Source of the DNA: Rhodococcus aetherivorans
Lineage (GTDB): Bacteria > Actinomycetota > Actinomycetes > Mycobacteriales > Mycobacteriaceae
Direction: 5' to 3'
Length of the DNA: 64,000 nucleotides
NCBI RefSeq assembly: GCF_011058165.1
Contig: NZ_JAALEG010000006.1
Span: 62,001 to 126,000 of the forward strand
A model generated the notes under the pieces. That model saw only the letters and a program-made list of their open reading frames with translations. It was not told where the DNA came from and searched no databases. Both the position numbers and the translations under genes were made by a program. Positions within the stretch are counted from its first letter, which is position 1, and the number at the start of each line of letters is the position of its first letter. Below, in pieces: positions 30,002 through 41,503 of this stretch.

Positions 30002-32506
<2,505 letters not shown>

Positions 32507-32656
32507 GAGCTCCTTCTTCTACTCGGCTCGAACGCCGCGGGCTTCCGCCCGGCGCGCGTCTCGCAACCACACGAGTCTATAGGTGCAGGTCAGCTCGCAC
32601 ACCGACCGATGCGGCGATTCCGCTCGACCGACCCTGCACGTCGCCCGGAATTCGCG

Positions 32657-33490
32657 TCACGATCGCGCCGGAACGGTCCGCGACGAGTCGGTGCCGTCGT
32701 CGTCGGTGGTCCAGCGGGCGAACTCCTGTTCCAGTGCCAGATCCCTCCGGCTGGGCGCGAGCAGCAGCGCCGCGATGGGCACGGTGAGAACGACGATGCC
32801 GAGCACGAAGGAGGGGAACAGCAGGGCGGTGACGGTCTGGCCCGCCGGCAGCGGGACGGTCGGGTCGACCTGGACGCGCACACCGGCCATGCCGGTGTAG
32901 TGCAGCGCCACGACCGCGCAGCCCATGAGCAGGGCGGCCGGTACCCGGAGCGTCCACCGGTCCGCGGCCTGCGCGAGCCACAGGGCGACCGTGGCCGCGA
33001 CGACACCGATGGCCACCGAGGCCACGACGAACGCCGTGTCGTGCTCGAGCGAGCCCTGGATCCGGATGGCCCACATGCCGCTGTAGTGCATGAGGCTGAC
33101 CGCCAGGCCCATCCCGACGCCGCCGACGAACAGGCGGACGAGAGACGGGACGCGGTTCACCCACGCGGCGCGGGAGCTCACGAGCCAGAGCCCGAACCAG
33201 GTGGCGGCCACCGACAGCGCGACGGAGAAGACGGTCGGTCCCAGCGCGTAACGGACCGCGGTACCCGGGACGTCGAAGCCCATCATCCCGATGAAGTGCA
33301 TGAGCCAGACGGCCACACCGCCGACGGACAGGGCGGCCATGGCCATCCAGCGGCGGTGGCCGCGGCCGGTCGGGGCGATCAGCGCCTGGCGAGCGCAGGA
33401 GAGCCCGACGAACGATCCGACGACGGAGGTGGCATAGGCGAGGAAGAACACCCACATCCCCATGGAGAAGTGGTGCATTTCGTGCGACAT
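32657..33490 (-). CDS. MHYT-domain membrane protein (paralogue 1)
   Basis: A 277-residue protein. The ATG follows AAGGT. Seven predicted helices carry three MHYT-type motifs: LMHFIGM (about residue 66), LMHYSGM (about 138) and LHYTGM (about 208). The family is proposed to bind copper or sense oxygen, CO or NO through these Met/His residues. The C-terminal about 30 residues are cytosolic and charged; no GGDEF or other output domain is present. It lies 157 bp after the second MHYT gene on the same strand. Confidence 0.85.
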   Translation of the reverse strand: MSHEMHHFSMGMWVFFLAYATSVVGSFVGLSCARQALIAPTGRGHRRWMAMAALSVGGVAVWLMHFIGMMGFDVPGTAVRYALGPTVFSVALSVAATWFGLWLVSSRAAWVNRVPSLVRLFVGGVGMGLAVSLMHYSGMWAIRIQGSLEHDTAFVVASVAIGVVAATVALWLAQAADRWTLRVPAALLMGCAVVALHYTGMAGVRVQVDPTVPLPAGQTVTALLFPSFVLGIVVLTVPIAALLLAPSRRDLALEQEFARWTTDDDGTDSSRTVPARS

Positions 33491-33647
33491 CGTGACCTTC
33501 TGAGCGTGGCACGCGGAAGTCGGTCCGCACTCGTGCGGTGGCGCGCCACACCGAATCGATACGGGCTGCGACTTCGCCCCCTCGACAGCGATCGGAGCGT
33601 ATCGCATCGATGTAATTCGCACGGGGGCAGGTCCCGCCCCCGTGCGC

Positions 33648-34484
33648 TCAGGTGGCCGGACGCCGGGGATCGGCCGGGCTGTGCTGCTGCGCCCACGCCT
33701 CGGCCTCGGCCTCCAGTGCGGCCGCCACCCGGTCGGGAGCCATGAGCAACGCCATGATCGGGACCGTCAGGATCAGCATGCCGAGCACGAACACCGGGAA
33801 GAGGACGGCGAACACCTCGACCCCCGACGGGGCCGCGGTCGCCGGATCCACCGTCACCTGCACCGCCGCCATCGCGAGGAAGTGCACGCCGATCACCGCC
33901 GCGCCGGCGAAGATGCTGCCGCCGATCCGCATCCACCTGCTGTCGGCGACCGTGACCAGCCACAGGACCACCACCGCGGTAAGGCAAGCCGCCACCACGG
34001 ACGCCGCCACGTAGGTCAGGTCGTATGCGACGGTGCCCTGCAGTTCCATCGCCCACATGATCGAGTAGTGCACGCCGGCGATCCCGGCGCCGAGGACCAG
34101 CGACCCGCCCAGCAGCCGTGCCGCCACGGCACCGCGCGACGGCCGGGCCCGGCGCGACACCCGCTTCGGCTGCACGACCACCATGGCGACGAAGGCGGAC
34201 ACCAGCGCCACCGCCATCGAGAAGACGATGCCGAGCAGGTCGTATCGGATGATGCTGCCGTCCACCGTGAAACCCGCCATCGGCAGGAAGTGCGCCAGCC
34301 ACACCCCGACGCCCCCGGTCGAGAGCGCGGCTCGCATCAGCCAGTACAGCCGCGCCCGTTCCGAACCGGCGGACAGCGACTTGCGGGCACTGGCCAGTCC
34401 CACGAGCAACCCGATCGCCGACGTCGCGTACGCCAGGACGATCACCCACGTGCCCATGCCGAACAGGTGCACGTGCGTGTCCAT
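33648..34484 (-). CDS. MHYT-domain membrane protein (paralogue 2, changed motifs)
   Basis: A 278-residue paralogue of the neighbouring MHYT protein with the same seven-helix layout. The motif histidines remain but the leading methionines are lost: LAHFLPM, VHYSIM, VHFLAM. Ligand binding may differ. Its ATG overlaps the TGA of the conservon GTPase gene, so its translation is coupled to that system, which suggests it is the membrane sensor or partner of the GTPase. Confidence 0.83.
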   Translation of the reverse strand: MDTHVHLFGMGTWVIVLAYATSAIGLLVGLASARKSLSAGSERARLYWLMRAALSTGGVGVWLAHFLPMAGFTVDGSIIRYDLLGIVFSMAVALVSAFVAMVVVQPKRVSRRARPSRGAVAARLLGGSLVLGAGIAGVHYSIMWAMELQGTVAYDLTYVAASVVAACLTAVVVLWLVTVADSRWMRIGGSIFAGAAVIGVHFLAMAAVQVTVDPATAAPSGVEVFAVLFPVFVLGMLILTVPIMALLMAPDRVAAALEAEAEAWAQQHSPADPRRPAT

Positions 34485-35071
34485 CAGGGCGCTACCGGCT
34501 GATGCAGCTTGCGCAGCGCGTACTCGGTGACCGTCACGAGCGCCGACTTGGCGGACTCGCGCTGCCGAGCGTCGATCGAGACGATCGGCACGTCCGCCGA
34601 GACCGCGAGGGCCTGACGGATGTCCTCGGTCGGGTACCGCGGGGCGTCGTCGAATTCGTTGATCGCGACGATGAACGGCAGGTTCCGGGCCTCGAAGAAG
34701 TCGACCGCCGCGAAACTCTCGTCCAGACGCCGGGTGTCGATGAGCACGATGGCACCGATCGCACCTCGGATCAGGTCGTCCCACATGAACCAGAACCGGT
34801 GCTGCCCCGGCGTACCGAACAGGTACAGCACGAGATCCTCGGCGAGGCTGATCCGGCCGAAGTCCATCGCGACGGTCGTGGTGGCCTTCTGCGGCGTCGC
34901 GCTCAGGTTGTCGACGCCGTCGCTGGCGTTGGTGACCAGCGCTTCGGTGCGCAGCGGAACGATCTCCGAGACCGCCCCCACCAACGTGGTCTTGCCGACA
35001 CCGAAGCCCCCGGCGATCACGATCTTCGTCGAGGTCACCCGCTTCGGGGAGTTAGAGTTCGCGAAGTCCAC
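34484..35071 (-). CDS. conservon small GTPase (CvnD-like)
   Basis: A 195-residue protein. The GTG start is preceded by AAAGGG; a TTG 15 bases upstream is possible. The P-loop is GGFGVGKTTL, the third motif is LFGTPGQHRF, close to MglA and Rab GTPases, and the base-recognition loop is AINEFD. In Streptomyces conservons, CvnD works with the kinase, roadblock and DUF742 proteins in a membrane complex resembling eukaryotic G-protein systems. It overlaps the DUF742 gene by 20 bp. Confidence 0.9.
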   Translation of the reverse strand: MDFANSNSPKRVTSTKIVIAGGFGVGKTTLVGAVSEIVPLRTEALVTNASDGVDNLSATPQKATTTVAMDFGRISLAEDLVLYLFGTPGQHRFWFMWDDLIRGAIGAIVLIDTRRLDESFAAVDFFEARNLPFIVAINEFDDAPRYPTEDIRQALAVSADVPIVSIDARQRESAKSALVTVTEYALRKLHQPVAP

Positions 35072-35426
35072 TGAGGACCCTTTCAATCAGCTCACGACGC
35101 TCCGCGTCGCTCGAATCGTCTTTCAGGGTGGCCAGGATCCGTACGTGCCCGGCTTCGACGAGATCCGCCACGAGTACGCGCGCCACCCCGATCGGCACAC
35201 CCACCCGCGCCGCGATCTCGGCGACCGACGGGGACTCTCTGCACAAAGCCACGATCGTGGCATTGATGTTGTCCAGGTCCCGGGCACGGTCGTCCGTGCC
35301 CGGGAGGACCTGGATCAGTGCCTCCAACGCCAGCTCGACCGCGGGGCTGGTCCGTCCCGAAGTCAGTGAGTACGGCCGGACCAGACTGGGCTGGGCCGGC
35401 GGCGACTCCGGCTTGCGTTCTTCCAT
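35052..35426 (-). CDS. DUF742 family protein (CvnC-like)
   Basis: A 124-residue protein. A disordered start is followed by VRPYSLTSGRT and a winged-helix-like part with SPSVAEIAARVGVPIGVARVLV (core AEIAARVGVPIGVARVL, about 66-83). The family occurs almost only next to roadblock and GTPase genes of conservons. It lies 13 bp after the roadblock stop. Confidence 0.9.
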   Translation of the reverse strand: MEERKPESPPAQPSLVRPYSLTSGRTSPAVELALEALIQVLPGTDDRARDLDNINATIVALCRESPSVAEIAARVGVPIGVARVLVADLVEAGHVRILATLKDDSSDAERRELIERVLSGLREL

Positions 35427-35439
35427 GGCCACCTCGACG

Positions 35440-35856
35440 TCAGGACCCCAGACCGATGCGCGGAGTGGCCTCGACCGACGCCCCCACACGATCGACCAGG
35501 AGTGCCATCTCGTAACCGACCTGTCCGATGTCGCATTCCGAGGCGGTCAGGGTCGCAAGGTGCGAGCCGTCACCCACGCTCATCAGCAGCAGGTAACCGT
35601 GCTGCATCTCCACGACGGACTGGAGCACTCCGCCGCCCTCGAAGAGCTGGGACACGCCGTTGGACAGGCTGGCCAGGCCGGACGTGACGGCAGCGAGCTG
35701 CTCGGCACGGTCGACAGGCAGGTGTGCGCTGGCCGCCATCAGGAGGCCGTCCGCGGACACGAGCACGGCGTGCGAGACGCCGGGAACCTCGCGCGCGAAG
35801 TTCGACACCAACCAGTCCAGAGGACGAGTTACGTCGGATCCATGGTCAATGTTCAT
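35440..35856 (-). CDS. roadblock/LC7 domain protein (CvnB-like)
   Basis: A 138-residue protein, mostly one roadblock domain: [20 protein letters not shown] then [11 protein letters not shown] and a helix-rich C-terminal part. Bacterial roadblock proteins act as regulators of MglA-type GTPases; here the GTPase is two genes downstream. The ATG overlaps the stop of the kinase gene. Confidence 0.92.
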
Positions 35857-38800
35857 CGAACTCCCTGTTCGTCGGTCTGGGTGGACGCGTGCGCGGAGGC
35901 CCGCCCGTTGCGAACCCCTTGCTGGTGACGGCTCAGGTTGGCCCGGATGGCCTCCGGGTCGCGCCGCCGAACAGCCGGCACAGATCCGGTCGCCGGGGAG
36001 GCGACCGCACCGGGCACCAGCCTATGACCGGGTGCACGTCGCGGAAGACCCGCGGTGGTGAGTTGCTCCACCGGGGCTTGCGCCGCCTCCTGGGCGGCCC
36101 TCCAACCGACGTCCGCCCGCGAGTTCCACTCCGGCCGACGGTCCTCCGGCAGGCTCGTCGGATCGACGAGCCAGCTCGACATCATGTCGGCGAAGATCGG
36201 CGTGCCGGCACCCGGACGCAGCGTGTTGACGTCGGGCCGCGGCTGGAAGAACGCGGCCGTCTTGGCCGGGTTCGTCCGGTACCGATGCCGTGCGGCGCGG
36301 CCCGGCTGCCCGTCGGCTGCTGCGCTGCCGTGGCCGGCGGACGCGGCGGCCGGGTCTGCGGACTGCTCGGAATGCTGCTGCGGCAGGGAGGAATCGGCGG
36401 CGGCCGGCGGCGTCGGCAGCCCGGGAGTGCTCCCGGGGCGGCGCTGCGGCAGACCGTTGCCCGACGCACCGCTGCCCGACGCACCGTTCCCCGACGCACC
36501 GCTGCCCGGCACAGCAGCGGACGGCTGCGGCGACAGACCCGGCGTGGCACCCGGCCGGCGCTGCGGCAGACCATTGCCCGCGGACGACGGAGCCGGCTGC
36601 GGCGACAGACCCGGCGTGGCACCCGGCCGGCGCTGCGGCAGACCATTGCCCGCGGTGGCCGGAGCCGGCTGCGGCGACAGACCCGGCGTGGCACCCGGCC
36701 GGCGCTGCGGCAGACCGCTGCCCGCGGACGACGGAGCCGACTCGGGCGAGGCCGGAGCGGCCGCGGCGGGAGCAGGAGCAGACGAGACCGTCTCCGAGCG
36801 GCGCGGCGGCAGGACCGGCGTCGGACCGGGTTGCCGTCGGGGCAGTTCCGACAGCGGCGTGGGCTGGCGCGGCACAGGACCCGGGGTGACACCCGGCTGA
36901 CGCTGCGGCAGACCGGGAGTCGAGCCGGGGCGGCGCTGCGGCAGACCGGGAGTGGTCCCCGGCTGGCGCTGCGGCAGACCCGCGGATGGCTCCGGAGGAA
37001 CGGGTGCCGGCTGGCGCTGCGGCAGCGGCGATTCCGGCGCGGGGGTGCGTTCCGGCAGGGCCGGGGCCGCGACGTCGCGCGGCGGCCGCGGAGCCAGGGC
37101 CTCGGCCGGACGGCCGTCCTCGCCCATGCGCGGCTGCGGCCCGGTCTGCGACAGGGCGAGCGGCGAGACGAGGAGCACGTCGGGAATGTGGACGCTGGCG
37201 GTGATGCCCGGGTTGCGTGCGGTGTCGAACGTCGGGCGCAGCCGCACGGTGAGGCCGTGCCGCGCCGCGAGGCGCGAGACCACGAACAGACCCATGTGGC
37301 GGGCGGTGTCGGGACCGACCTCGCCACCGAGAGCAAGCCGCTCGTTGATCGCGTCGAGTTCCTCGGCCGGGATCCCGATACCGCGGTCGGCGATCTCGAC
37401 GAGCAGGCCACCGTCGACGGCCCGGGCGAAGCTGAACGTCACGGTGCTGTCCGGCGGGGACGCCCGCAGCGAGTTGTCGACGAGCTCGGCGAGCAGGTGG
37501 ACGATGTCCGTGGCGACCGTGCCGCTGAGTGCGCCTTCCGGCGTCGAGCCGATCTGGACGCGCTGGTAGTCCTCCACCTCGGACATCGCGGCACGCAGGA
37601 TGTCACCGAGCTGTACGGGCGCGGAGTGGCCGCGCCGCATCCGGGTGCCCGAGAGGATCAGCAGGTTGTCGCCGTTACGGCGCATGCGCGCCGCGAGGTG
37701 GTCGAGTCGGAACAGGCTCTCGAGCCGGGCCGGATCCTTCTCCTCGTACTCGAGTCGTTCGATGAGGCCGAGCTGCTGCTCGACGAGCGACTTGCTGCGC
37801 CGGGCGAGGGTCTCGAACATGTCGTTGATCTGCAGGCGGAGGTGGGCCTGCTCGCCGGCGAGGCGCAGGGCCTGCCCGTGCATGTCGTCGACGGCGCGGG
37901 CGAGCTGGCCGACCTCCTCGGTCGTGTGCACCGGGACCCGCGTGAACTCGATGTCCTCGACGTTGTCACCCACCTTGATGCGGTCGATGGCGTCGGGGAG
38001 TTCCTGCCGGGCGACCTTGAGAGCGCCGTAGCGCAGGCGGCGGATCGGGCCGACGAGCGACCGCGACACGAGAAGCGCCAGGACGAGCGCGGCGAGCAGG
38101 GCACCGAGCACGATCGCGGTGTCGCGGAGGGCGGCGGAGCGGGTGTCGGAGGCGCGGGCGAGAACGGTCTCGCTGATCGCGTCGGACGCCTCGTCGATGA
38201 GGGTGCCGTAGACCTCGACGCTCTGCAGCAGCGACGAGCGCAGGTTCAGGATGGGCAGCGGCCCGTCGCCGGCGGCGTCGATCATCGCGGTGCGCTCGGC
38301 GACGCCGTTGCGCAGCTCCTGGATCTGGGCGTCGGACGCCGGATACGACCGGGCGAGCGTCTCGAGCATGGCGAGCTCGGAGCCGGACGCGGACACCAGG
38401 GTGGTGCCCGGCTGGTCCGGGTCCCGCAGGATCGCCACGATGCCCATCACCTGATCGAACAGGTAGCGCTGCGACGCCCAGGCGTCGACGAGCCGGGTGC
38501 CCTCGGCGAGCACGGACGGATCCTCGATCGGCTCGACGATCGCCTCGACGATGCGGATCAGGTCCTTGCGGATGGCATTGGTCTGCTCGTTGAGCTCGGG
38601 GAGCGGGATGTTGCCGGCCGCGATACGGTCTCGCAGCGCCTCGGCGGCGGCCACGGTGCGGGTGAGGTCCGCGGCGATGACCGGATCCAGCTCCGGATTC
38701 TGGGACACCGCCCGGACGCGTTCCAGTGTCGCGTCGAGGTTCTCGATCTCGTTCGTGATGCCGGTGCCGGCGGCCAGCGTCGCGGAGGCGGTACCGAAGG

Positions 38801-39017
38801 CGGTACCGAAGTCGACGAGGTCGGGCACGACGGCCACCTGGTCGGCAGCGGACGAGAAGTGGACGGCGTTGGAGAGCTCCTGCTGCACGCGCAGGCCGCC
38901 CAGCACCATTGCCACGGTCACGGGAACGGCGAGAACGGCGGTCACCTTCCAGCGAAGGCCCCACCCTTCGATGTTCCACCACCGCTGCCGAGGTGGCGAT
39001 TCGTCACTCATCTTCAC
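35853..39017 (-). CDS. conservon sensor histidine kinase with nitrate-sensor-like domain (CvnA-like)
   Basis: A 1054-residue protein. Membrane helix 1 (about 24-42), an extracellular helical sensor of the NIT type (about 50-300), membrane helix 2 (about 303-323), HAMP (about 323-400), a dimerisation region with [13 protein letters not shown], and a HATPase domain with [17 protein letters not shown] and MGLFVVSRL (about 505-625). The last about 400 residues are Pro/Gln/Arg-rich with repeated [12 protein letters not shown] units, likely disordered. A true phosphoacceptor site is uncertain. The start could be the GTG used here or an ATG six bases inside. It heads the conservon. Confidence 0.88.
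36523..36738 (-). repeat. three 72-bp tandem repeats in the kinase gene
   Basis: Copies at 36523-36594, 36595-36666 and 36667-36738 are nearly identical and encode a 24-residue Pro-rich unit; shorter related units flank them. Array length is likely variable. Confidence 0.85.

Positions 39018-39349: not shown

Positions 39350-41503
<2,154 letters not shown>

What the first reader, a model, noticed from the sequence alone, without database searches (positions are those of the whole stretch)
32657..39017. Conservon extended by two MHYT membrane proteins between gyrA and gyrB
The order kinase-roadblock-DUF742-GTPase is a standard conservon, but the GTPase stop overlaps the start of an MHYT membrane protein, with a second MHYT gene following. 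MHYT proteins are proposed metal or gas sensors and usually carry GGDEF/EAL outputs; here they have none. A candidate signalling module is a membrane MHYT sensor coupled to an MglA-like GTPase. Its insertion splits gyrB from gyrA by 6.8 kb, although these genes are usually adjacent in relatives.
Basis: partly seen in the sequence, partly recalled or inferred. Interest (0 to 1): 0.75.

Follow-up and report, generated by a model that had tools for sequence, protein, structure and literature searches.

The report
Bacterial G-protein operon carrying seven-helix proteins
A bacterial G-protein signalling operon sits between two gyrase genes and carries two seven-helix membrane proteins of a gas/metal-sensor family; relatives suggest the pairing is old, arose more than once, and that the copy touching the G-protein gene tends to lose its presumed sensing residues.

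Summary
On the minus strand of a Rhodococcus genome (R. ruber relative) the order is gyrB, CvnA-like kinase, roadblock, DUF742, GTPase, MHYT1, MHYT2, gyrA; the GTPase stop and MHYT1 start share one base. It is not strain-specific: 18 of 18 genus genomes have conservon plus one to three MHYT genes before gyrA. The link is also independent of gyr: elsewhere in the family MHYT adjoins conservon genes at 32 of 35 loci examined, and in a class sample a different MHYT clade lies 5' of cvnA at 16 of 40 loci examined. The pairing probably arose at least twice.

MHYT2 keeps every MHYT histidine and methionine. The MHYT1 lineage has repeatedly lost them (all three repeat histidines in 4 of 23, the window's included, versus 90 of 93 other MHYTs) while staying open, under purifying selection and keeping a cytoplasmic P-D-R tail. 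I read the MHYTs as membrane inputs of the conservon: MHYT2 a probable copper/gas sensor, MHYT1 a relay or anchor. Physical interaction and copper binding are inferred. No paper in the searched library held both 'MHYT' and 'conservon'.

The parts
39350..41482 (-). gyrB, upstream neighbour
   Evidence: Pfam DNA_gyraseB 3.4e-63
35853..39017 (-). CvnA-like sensor kinase, 1054 aa; hydrophobic segments at about 25-43 and 301-319 with about 258 residues between; HAMP, HATPase, Pro-rich tail with 12 LPxR motifs
35440..35856 (-). CvnB-like roadblock/LC7 protein, overlaps the cvnA stop by 4 nt
   Evidence: Pfam Robl_LC7 1.9e-23; gap -4
35052..35426 (-). CvnC-like DUF742 protein
   Evidence: Pfam DUF742 4.5e-33
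34484..35086 (-). CvnD-like (MglA group) small GTPase; likely start at GTG 35071
   Evidence: Pfam ATP_bind_1 2e-31; start inferred from the 20-nt overlap with DUF742 seen in relatives
33648..34484 (-). MHYT1, 278 aa, seven predicted TM helices, start shares one base with the GTPase stop; cytoplasmic tail with PDR
32657..33490 (-). MHYT2, 277 aa, seven predicted TM helices, complete MHYT His/Met set
32507..32656 (-). MHYT2-gyrA intergenic stretch with an invariant block including CTATAGACTCG, a probable gyrA promoter
   Evidence: alignment A5, 9 sequences; the promoter reading is inference, the consensus scan found none
30002..32506 (-). gyrA, uninterrupted, downstream neighbour
   Evidence: Pfam DNA_topoisoIV 5.4e-156

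Best explanation
A conservon (actinobacterial G-protein system) has taken on MHYT seven-helix proteins as dedicated membrane inputs. MHYT2 is the likely sensor: its His/Met set would hold copper near the outer face of the membrane and respond to a diatomic gas or to redox. MHYT1, made by translational coupling right after the GTPase, would sit in the same membrane complex and use its cytoplasmic P-D-R tail to pass the state to, or hold in place, CvnA and/or the GTPase. CvnB and CvnC would then set the GTPase's nucleotide state, which is the output. Shown: gene order, one-base stop/start overlap, intact frames, purifying selection, recurrent linkage in two clades, motif retention in MHYT2 and loss in MHYT1 relatives, conserved tail. 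Inferred: translational coupling itself, copper, ligand, protein contacts, direction of signalling. In the window's own species MHYT1 still has all its repeat histidines, so it may still bind metal there.
For: 18 of 18 genus genomes carry conservon plus MHYT before gyrA. The stop/start overlap is exactly one base in 15 of 15 genus genomes with an intact MHYT1 (where start choice favoured starts near the stop; 14 of these loci, L006 and L044 being one genome, gave the same under another rule); the other three (G009, G010, G011) keep MHYT1 remnants in the gap. Linkage in other genera of the family: 32 of 35 loci examined. A separate MHYT clade lies 5' of cvnA in 16 of 40 class loci, from 14 genomes of g48 and 2 of f19; the tree separates the two linked clades. 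These are the only MHYT genes found in the genome by Pfam and by the MHYT1 profile, and the only DUF742 gene with conservon partners. dN/dS of MHYT1 is 0.145-0.31 in 9 pairs and of MHYT2 0.125-0.29 in 7 pairs. A PDR/PNR tail is in 22 of 23 gyr-type MHYT1 and 8 of 10 other 3' MHYTs, 0 of 23 MHYT2/3, 0 of 17 5' MHYTs, 2 of 43 solos (solo tails were partly cut). CoxC, an MHYT regulator, responds to CO with copper (PMC11347149, abstract).
Against: No interaction, metal or gas data. All 51 linked CvnA proteins measured already have an extracytoplasmic region (the method forces two segments), so they need not have lacked a sensor. MHYTs change much faster than the conservon core (core dN/dS 0-0.061 with one DUF742 pair at 0.36), which also fits looser constraint. 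Unlinked MHYT genes are common: 24 of 40 class loci, 3 of 35 family loci, 18 of 18 solo loci of the genus. Conservons lie at gyr without any MHYT in G087 and G061, so MHYT is not obligatory.
Confidence: 0.6

Rival explanations
1. The MHYT proteins are membrane anchors or scaffolds for the conservon complex and sense nothing in this setting; the sensor is the extracytoplasmic part of CvnA.
For: His/Met loss in MHYT1 (4 of 23 keep all three repeat His) with frames intact and dN/dS well under 1; CvnA has 248-302 residues between its two strongest N-terminal hydrophobic segments (51 of 51).
Against: MHYT2/3 keep all three repeat His in 23 of 23 and 5'-placed MHYTs in 15 of 17, hard to explain without ligand binding in those copies.
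Confidence: 0.2
2. MHYT genes are co-transcribed neighbours with their own copper or gas function and no role in the conservon.
For: Many stand-alone unlinked MHYT genes (24 of 40 class loci; 18 of 18 genus solo loci); MHYT absent from some gyr conservons; gaps of about 150 nt separate MHYT1, MHYT2 and gyrA in the window.
Against: One-base overlap in 15 of 15; recurrence in two clades and two positions; MHYT kept with a gyr-type conservon that sits away from gyr (L205); the tail motif is mostly confined to copies 3' of the GTPase.
Confidence: 0.13
3. The location matters: the module senses a stress and adjusts gyrase, as the mfp conservon does through the pentapeptide protein MfpA in mycobacteria, and MHYT is an input to gyrase control.
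For: The conservon precedes gyrA in 18 of 18 genus genomes (gyrB seen on the other side in 17) and in some genomes of three further genera; an MfpB-MfpA-gyrase link is described in PMC4316618 (passages).
Against: Pfam pentapeptide matches in the genome lie on other contigs; gyrA has its own conserved upstream block; MHYT-conservons also occur away from gyr.
Confidence: 0.07

Closest known systems
Conservon / actinobacterial G-protein system (CvnA-D)
   Same: Four core genes, order, strand and domains; LPxR motifs in the CvnA tail (LPxR named in PMC4316618, passage)
   Different: Followed by MHYT seven-helix genes; 12 LPxR motifs in the tail versus 1-2 in the class loci counted the same way
Accessory proteins CvnE (P450) and CvnF (GAF) of conservons
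   Same: Fifth gene of the operon, proposed input to CvnA (PMC13343842, abstract, passages and sections 5-6)
   Different: Different domain, membrane-embedded; accompanies CvnA proteins that keep an extracytoplasmic region, whereas the paper finds CvnE/CvnF with CvnA lacking a sensory domain
MHYT regulator CoxC and MHYT-GGDEF/EAL proteins
   Same: MHYT membrane domain with His/Met repeats (MHYT2); copper-dependent CO response reported for CoxC (PMC11347149, abstract)
   Different: No output domain on the chain; the proposed output is a separate G-protein system
mfp conservon of mycobacteria
   Same: A conservon tied to gyrase, there by function (PMC4316618, passages), here by position
   Different: It has pentapeptide MfpA after the conservon; here MHYT1 is in that place and the operon lies between gyrB and gyrA

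Membership tests
Conservon (CvnA-D) | Kinase, roadblock, DUF742, GTPase in this order on one strand | tested here: met
Conservon (CvnA-D) | CvnA C-terminal LPxR motif | tested here: met
   12 copies; motif named in PMC4316618 (passage)
Conservon (CvnA-D) | Proteins interact and the GTPase switches | not testable with these tools
   needs bench work
MHYT family (PF03707) | Motif repeats with conserved Met/His, in the window proteins | tested here: met
   MHYT2: three stretches, 116.5 bits against a cut-off of 21, all His/Met. MHYT1: two stretches, 76.2 bits, three repeat His and Met present but the motif letters are altered
MHYT family (PF03707) | The same motif residues across the MHYT1 lineage | tested here: not met
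   4 of 23 keep all three repeat His; they remain MHYT-like over the whole length
MHYT family (PF03707) | Seven transmembrane segments, C terminus inside | tested here: inconclusive
MHYT family (PF03707) | Copper and diatomic gas binding | not testable with these tools
   reported for CoxC (PMC11347149 abstract)
CvnE/CvnF accessory proteins | P450 or GAF domain | tested here: not met
   MHYT matches only, plus a marginal Srg match in MHYT1 (22.5 bits, cut-off 22) that I take as membrane-helix similarity
CvnE/CvnF accessory proteins | Partner CvnA lacks an extracytoplasmic sensory domain | tested here: not met
   51 of 51 linked CvnA have 248-302 residues between hydrophobic segments; but Pfam gave no NIT match in the window protein at 0.01, so that region's fold is unassigned
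mfp conservon | Pentapeptide MfpA gene directly after the conservon | tested here: not met
   MHYT1 is there; the genome's pentapeptide matches lie on other contigs

The most novel reading that the evidence does not exclude
A bacterial analogue of a seven-helix receptor working with a G protein: MHYT2 is the ligand-binding receptor, and MHYT1 is a former sensor turned into a non-sensing partner subunit whose conserved P-D-R tail acts directly on the GTPase made from the overlapping gene (anchor, exchange stimulation, or an arginine supplied to the active site). Streptomyces-like bacteria would have recruited the same protein family separately, on the kinase side of the system.
Probability: 0.22. 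Interest if true: 0.85.

Novelty: new variant of a known kind. Interest (0 to 1): 0.62.

Why it matters
What conservons sense is largely open, and the 2026 paper read in part here names only P450 and GAF accessory types (PMC13343842). A third, membrane-embedded accessory type from a family with a copper/CO precedent gives a concrete ligand hypothesis for a group of G-protein systems. The repeated loss of presumed ligand residues in the copy next to the GTPase is a natural experiment that could separate sensing from relay.

Tried and rejected
Window-specific insertion: rejected, 18 of 18 genus genomes have the block. Pseudogene for MHYT1: rejected where the frame is intact (dN/dS 0.145-0.31 in 9 pairs), but G009-G011 keep only remnants. 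Pfam as the only detector: it missed MHYT1 of G014, found later with the A1 profile, because the motif is worn. Second conservon in this genome: the other DUF742 gene above cut-off (contig C205) has no roadblock, GTPase or kinase match in the 19.9 kb fetched, and the third, sub-threshold match (C161) has none in 11 kb; GTPase or roadblock genes without DUF742 were not searched for. Solved MHYT structure: none found by profile (two matches at E about 0.7 to a riboflavin transporter, taken as chance). Promoter and terminator consensus scans were uninformative (0 promoter-like sites, 2 terminator-like against 1.6 expected). The genome-contig scan with MHYT1 found one relative only, R. ruber. The plasmid search gave matches over gyrA only. 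One search translated MHYT1 out of frame; the protein it stored (P0001) was not used.

Bias: the family and class loci examined were chosen by me, mostly the best matches and, partly because they resembled linked ones: 35 of 75 match rows outside the genus in the family search, and 40 loci covering 42 of 125 rows outside the family in the class search. The fractions are therefore not frequencies. One search looked at only 1.5 kb of flank by BLAST and missed linkages that one search then showed, so its further unlinked-looking loci are not counted either way. Independent origin of the two linked clades is the simplest reading of a midpoint-rooted FastTree tree; one ancient linkage with many losses and a change of side is not excluded. 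Dropped rows: L044 (same genome as L006) and L060 (broken frame) were left out of the tree and motif counts; L095 was fetched on the wrong side; L057 and L195 had no CvnA in the stretch, so are not among the 51. L201 (G190) counts as a 5' MHYT by position but groups with the 3' clade in the tree; its distance to the CvnA start could not be set.
Full report
WHAT IS THERE. The window lies in a 6.43-Mb Rhodococcus genome (G000). The named relative found is R. ruber NBRC 15591 (92% identity over MHYT1); G006 of the genus set has a contig of the same length, 283,824 bases, as that record. On the minus strand the order is gyrB 39350-41482, CvnA-like kinase 35853-39017, roadblock 35440-35856, DUF742 35052-35426, GTPase 34484-35086, MHYT1 33648-34484, MHYT2 32657-33490, gyrA 30002-32506, with matching Pfam domains. 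The GTPase stop and MHYT1 start share one base (TGATG). 6,843 bp lie between gyrB and gyrA. No other MHYT gene was found in the genome with Pfam or with the MHYT1 profile. Its only other DUF742 gene above the Pfam cut-off stands without conservon partners in the 19.9 kb fetched.

NOT A STRAIN ODDITY. In 18 of 18 genomes of the genus held here a conservon with one to three MHYT genes precedes gyrA (gyrB is off the contig in G009). MHYT1, the copy right after the GTPase, is intact in 15 of 18, and in 15 of 15 of these the GTPase stop and MHYT1 start overlap by exactly one base, with ATG or GTG as start (with another start rule agrees for the 14 rows, 13 genomes, it covered). The other three (G009, G010, G011) have a 335-426-nt gap there with remnants of the MHYT1 N-terminus, so the loss is secondary. 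Six genomes have three MHYT genes at the locus (G002, G004, G005, G008, G013, G015); G014 has MHYT1 only. The genus also has 18 solo MHYT loci with no conservon gene in the stretch fetched.

THE gyr LOCATION. In 39 informative loci from other genera of the family, gyrB and gyrA are adjacent (gap 402 bp or less) in 33, separated by a conservon in 3 (G087 and G061 without MHYT, G039 with one), and separated by something else in 3. Targeted fetching added conservons with MHYT between gyrB and gyrA in G199, G122, G063, G181 and G120, and conservon-MHYT-gyrA order, gyrB not in view, in G144, G154, G079 and G108. gyrA has an invariant upstream block including CTATAGACTCG in 9 of 9 sequences aligned, which I read as its own promoter although the consensus scan found none.

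LINKAGE IS GENERAL. A profile of MHYT1 found matches in 58 of 201 family genomes. Outside the genus I examined the surroundings of 35 of the 75 match rows: 32 adjoin conservon genes (17 of 17, L132 being confirmed as L201; 3 of 3; 5 of 5; 7 of 10, one of these with only kinase and roadblock left). Several lie away from gyr, including G041, whose GTPase is 88% identical to the window's (L205). In a class sample 86 of 296 genomes had matches. Of 40 class loci examined with about 18 kb each, 16 have MHYT directly 5' of cvnA-B-C-D: 14 genomes of g48, which I take to be Streptomyces from genome size and number, and 2 of family f19; 24 have no conservon beside them. In those 16 the first CvnA start codon is -1 to 83 nt from the MHYT stop. 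In a FastTree tree of 116 MHYT proteins the 16 form one clade (support 0.93) nested among unlinked MHYTs, apart from the 3' clade of the window's family. The simplest reading is two recruitments, in opposite positions; one ancient linkage with many losses is not excluded.

MHYT1 VERSUS MHYT2. All three repeat histidines are kept in 23 of 23 MHYT2/3 proteins, 43 of 43 unlinked ones, 15 of 17 of the 5'-placed type and 9 of 10 of the other 3' type, but in only 4 of 23 gyr-type MHYT1 (window, R. ruber, G122, G079). On the tree this is 6 losses if regain is excluded, 3 changes by Fitch parsimony. Yet MHYT1 frames are open and dN/dS is 0.145-0.31 in 9 pairs (MHYT2 0.125-0.29 in 7 pairs, MHYT3 0.07-0.11 in 4; core genes 0-0.061 with one DUF742 pair at 0.36 on few changes). 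A tail with P-D/N-R is kept in 22 of 23 MHYT1 and 8 of 10 other 3' MHYTs against 0 of 23 MHYT2/3, 0 of 17 5' types and 2 of 43 solos (the solo sequences were cut at the profile's end, so that last comparison is weak). Hydropathy gives seven segments for both window proteins, with positive charges placing the C-terminus inside; of seven proteins tested, two gave eight.

KNOWN CONTEXT. PMC13343842 (abstract, passages and sections 5 and 6 seen) names two conservon accessory types, P450 (CvnE) and GAF (CvnF), found with CvnA proteins lacking a sensory domain. Here 51 of 51 MHYT-linked CvnA proteins have 248-302 residues between their two strongest N-terminal hydrophobic segments (the method always picks two), so the MHYT type seems to follow another rule. 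That paper's synteny rule looked for cvnE or cvnF four genes from cvnA. PMC11347149 (abstract and two passages) reports copper-dependent CO response by an MHYT regulator. Paper searches: MHYT with conservon 0; conservon with Rhodococcus 3 (listing only); MHYT domain with actinobacteria 0; MHYT with Streptomyces 1 and MHYT with GTPase 3, unrelated by title and start of abstract; conservon with gyrB 3 (listing only). None showed this pairing, but the library holds open-licence papers only.

MECHANISM. Most likely the MHYT proteins are dedicated membrane inputs of the conservon: MHYT2 senses (copper/gas by family precedent), MHYT1 relays or anchors next to the GTPase. Two loci that lost the GTPase gene but kept MHYT (L200 with kinase, roadblock and DUF742; L239 with kinase and roadblock and an 18-residue GTPase-like remnant) and the cvnA-side placement in the second clade argue that the partner may be CvnA as much as the GTPase. 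Interaction, ligand and output remain unproven. A gyrase-directed role is possible but not required.

Noticed in passing
L006:12353-13632 and L044; similar breaks in L084, L104, L107; shorter in L071: gyrA of R. ruber NBRC 15591 and some other family members is interrupted after about residue 131 by roughly 1.2-1.3 kb (about 0.5 kb in L071), which looks like an intein at the gyrase active-site tyrosine (intein reading recalled, not tested). The window's gyrA is uninterrupted.
   Followed up: no
35853-39017: The CvnA tail carries 12 LPxR motifs in a Pro-rich repeat; genus relatives have 10-16, other genera of the family 1-6 and the class loci 1-2, counted after frame position 620. Copy number varies like a repeat array.
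   Followed up: partly
L200:8250-10001 and L239:2150-3635: Conservons that have lost the GTPase gene (L239 also DUF742; an 18-residue GTPase-like remnant is left there) but keep MHYT directly after the remaining genes.
   Followed up: partly
L172, L174-L178, L216-L221: 12 of the 14 Streptomyces-like MHYT-conservons carry a second roadblock gene after the GTPase.
   Followed up: no
L084 (G055), L072 (G067), L073 (G020): Non-conservon material of about 10.3 kb, 4.6 kb and 1.5 kb separates gyrB from gyrA in three other genera.
   Followed up: no
G000:C205:67417-67740 (L231): Orphan DUF742 gene without conservon partners; a weak pentapeptide-repeat match (1.2e-5) lies directly next to it on the opposite strand.
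   Followed up: partly
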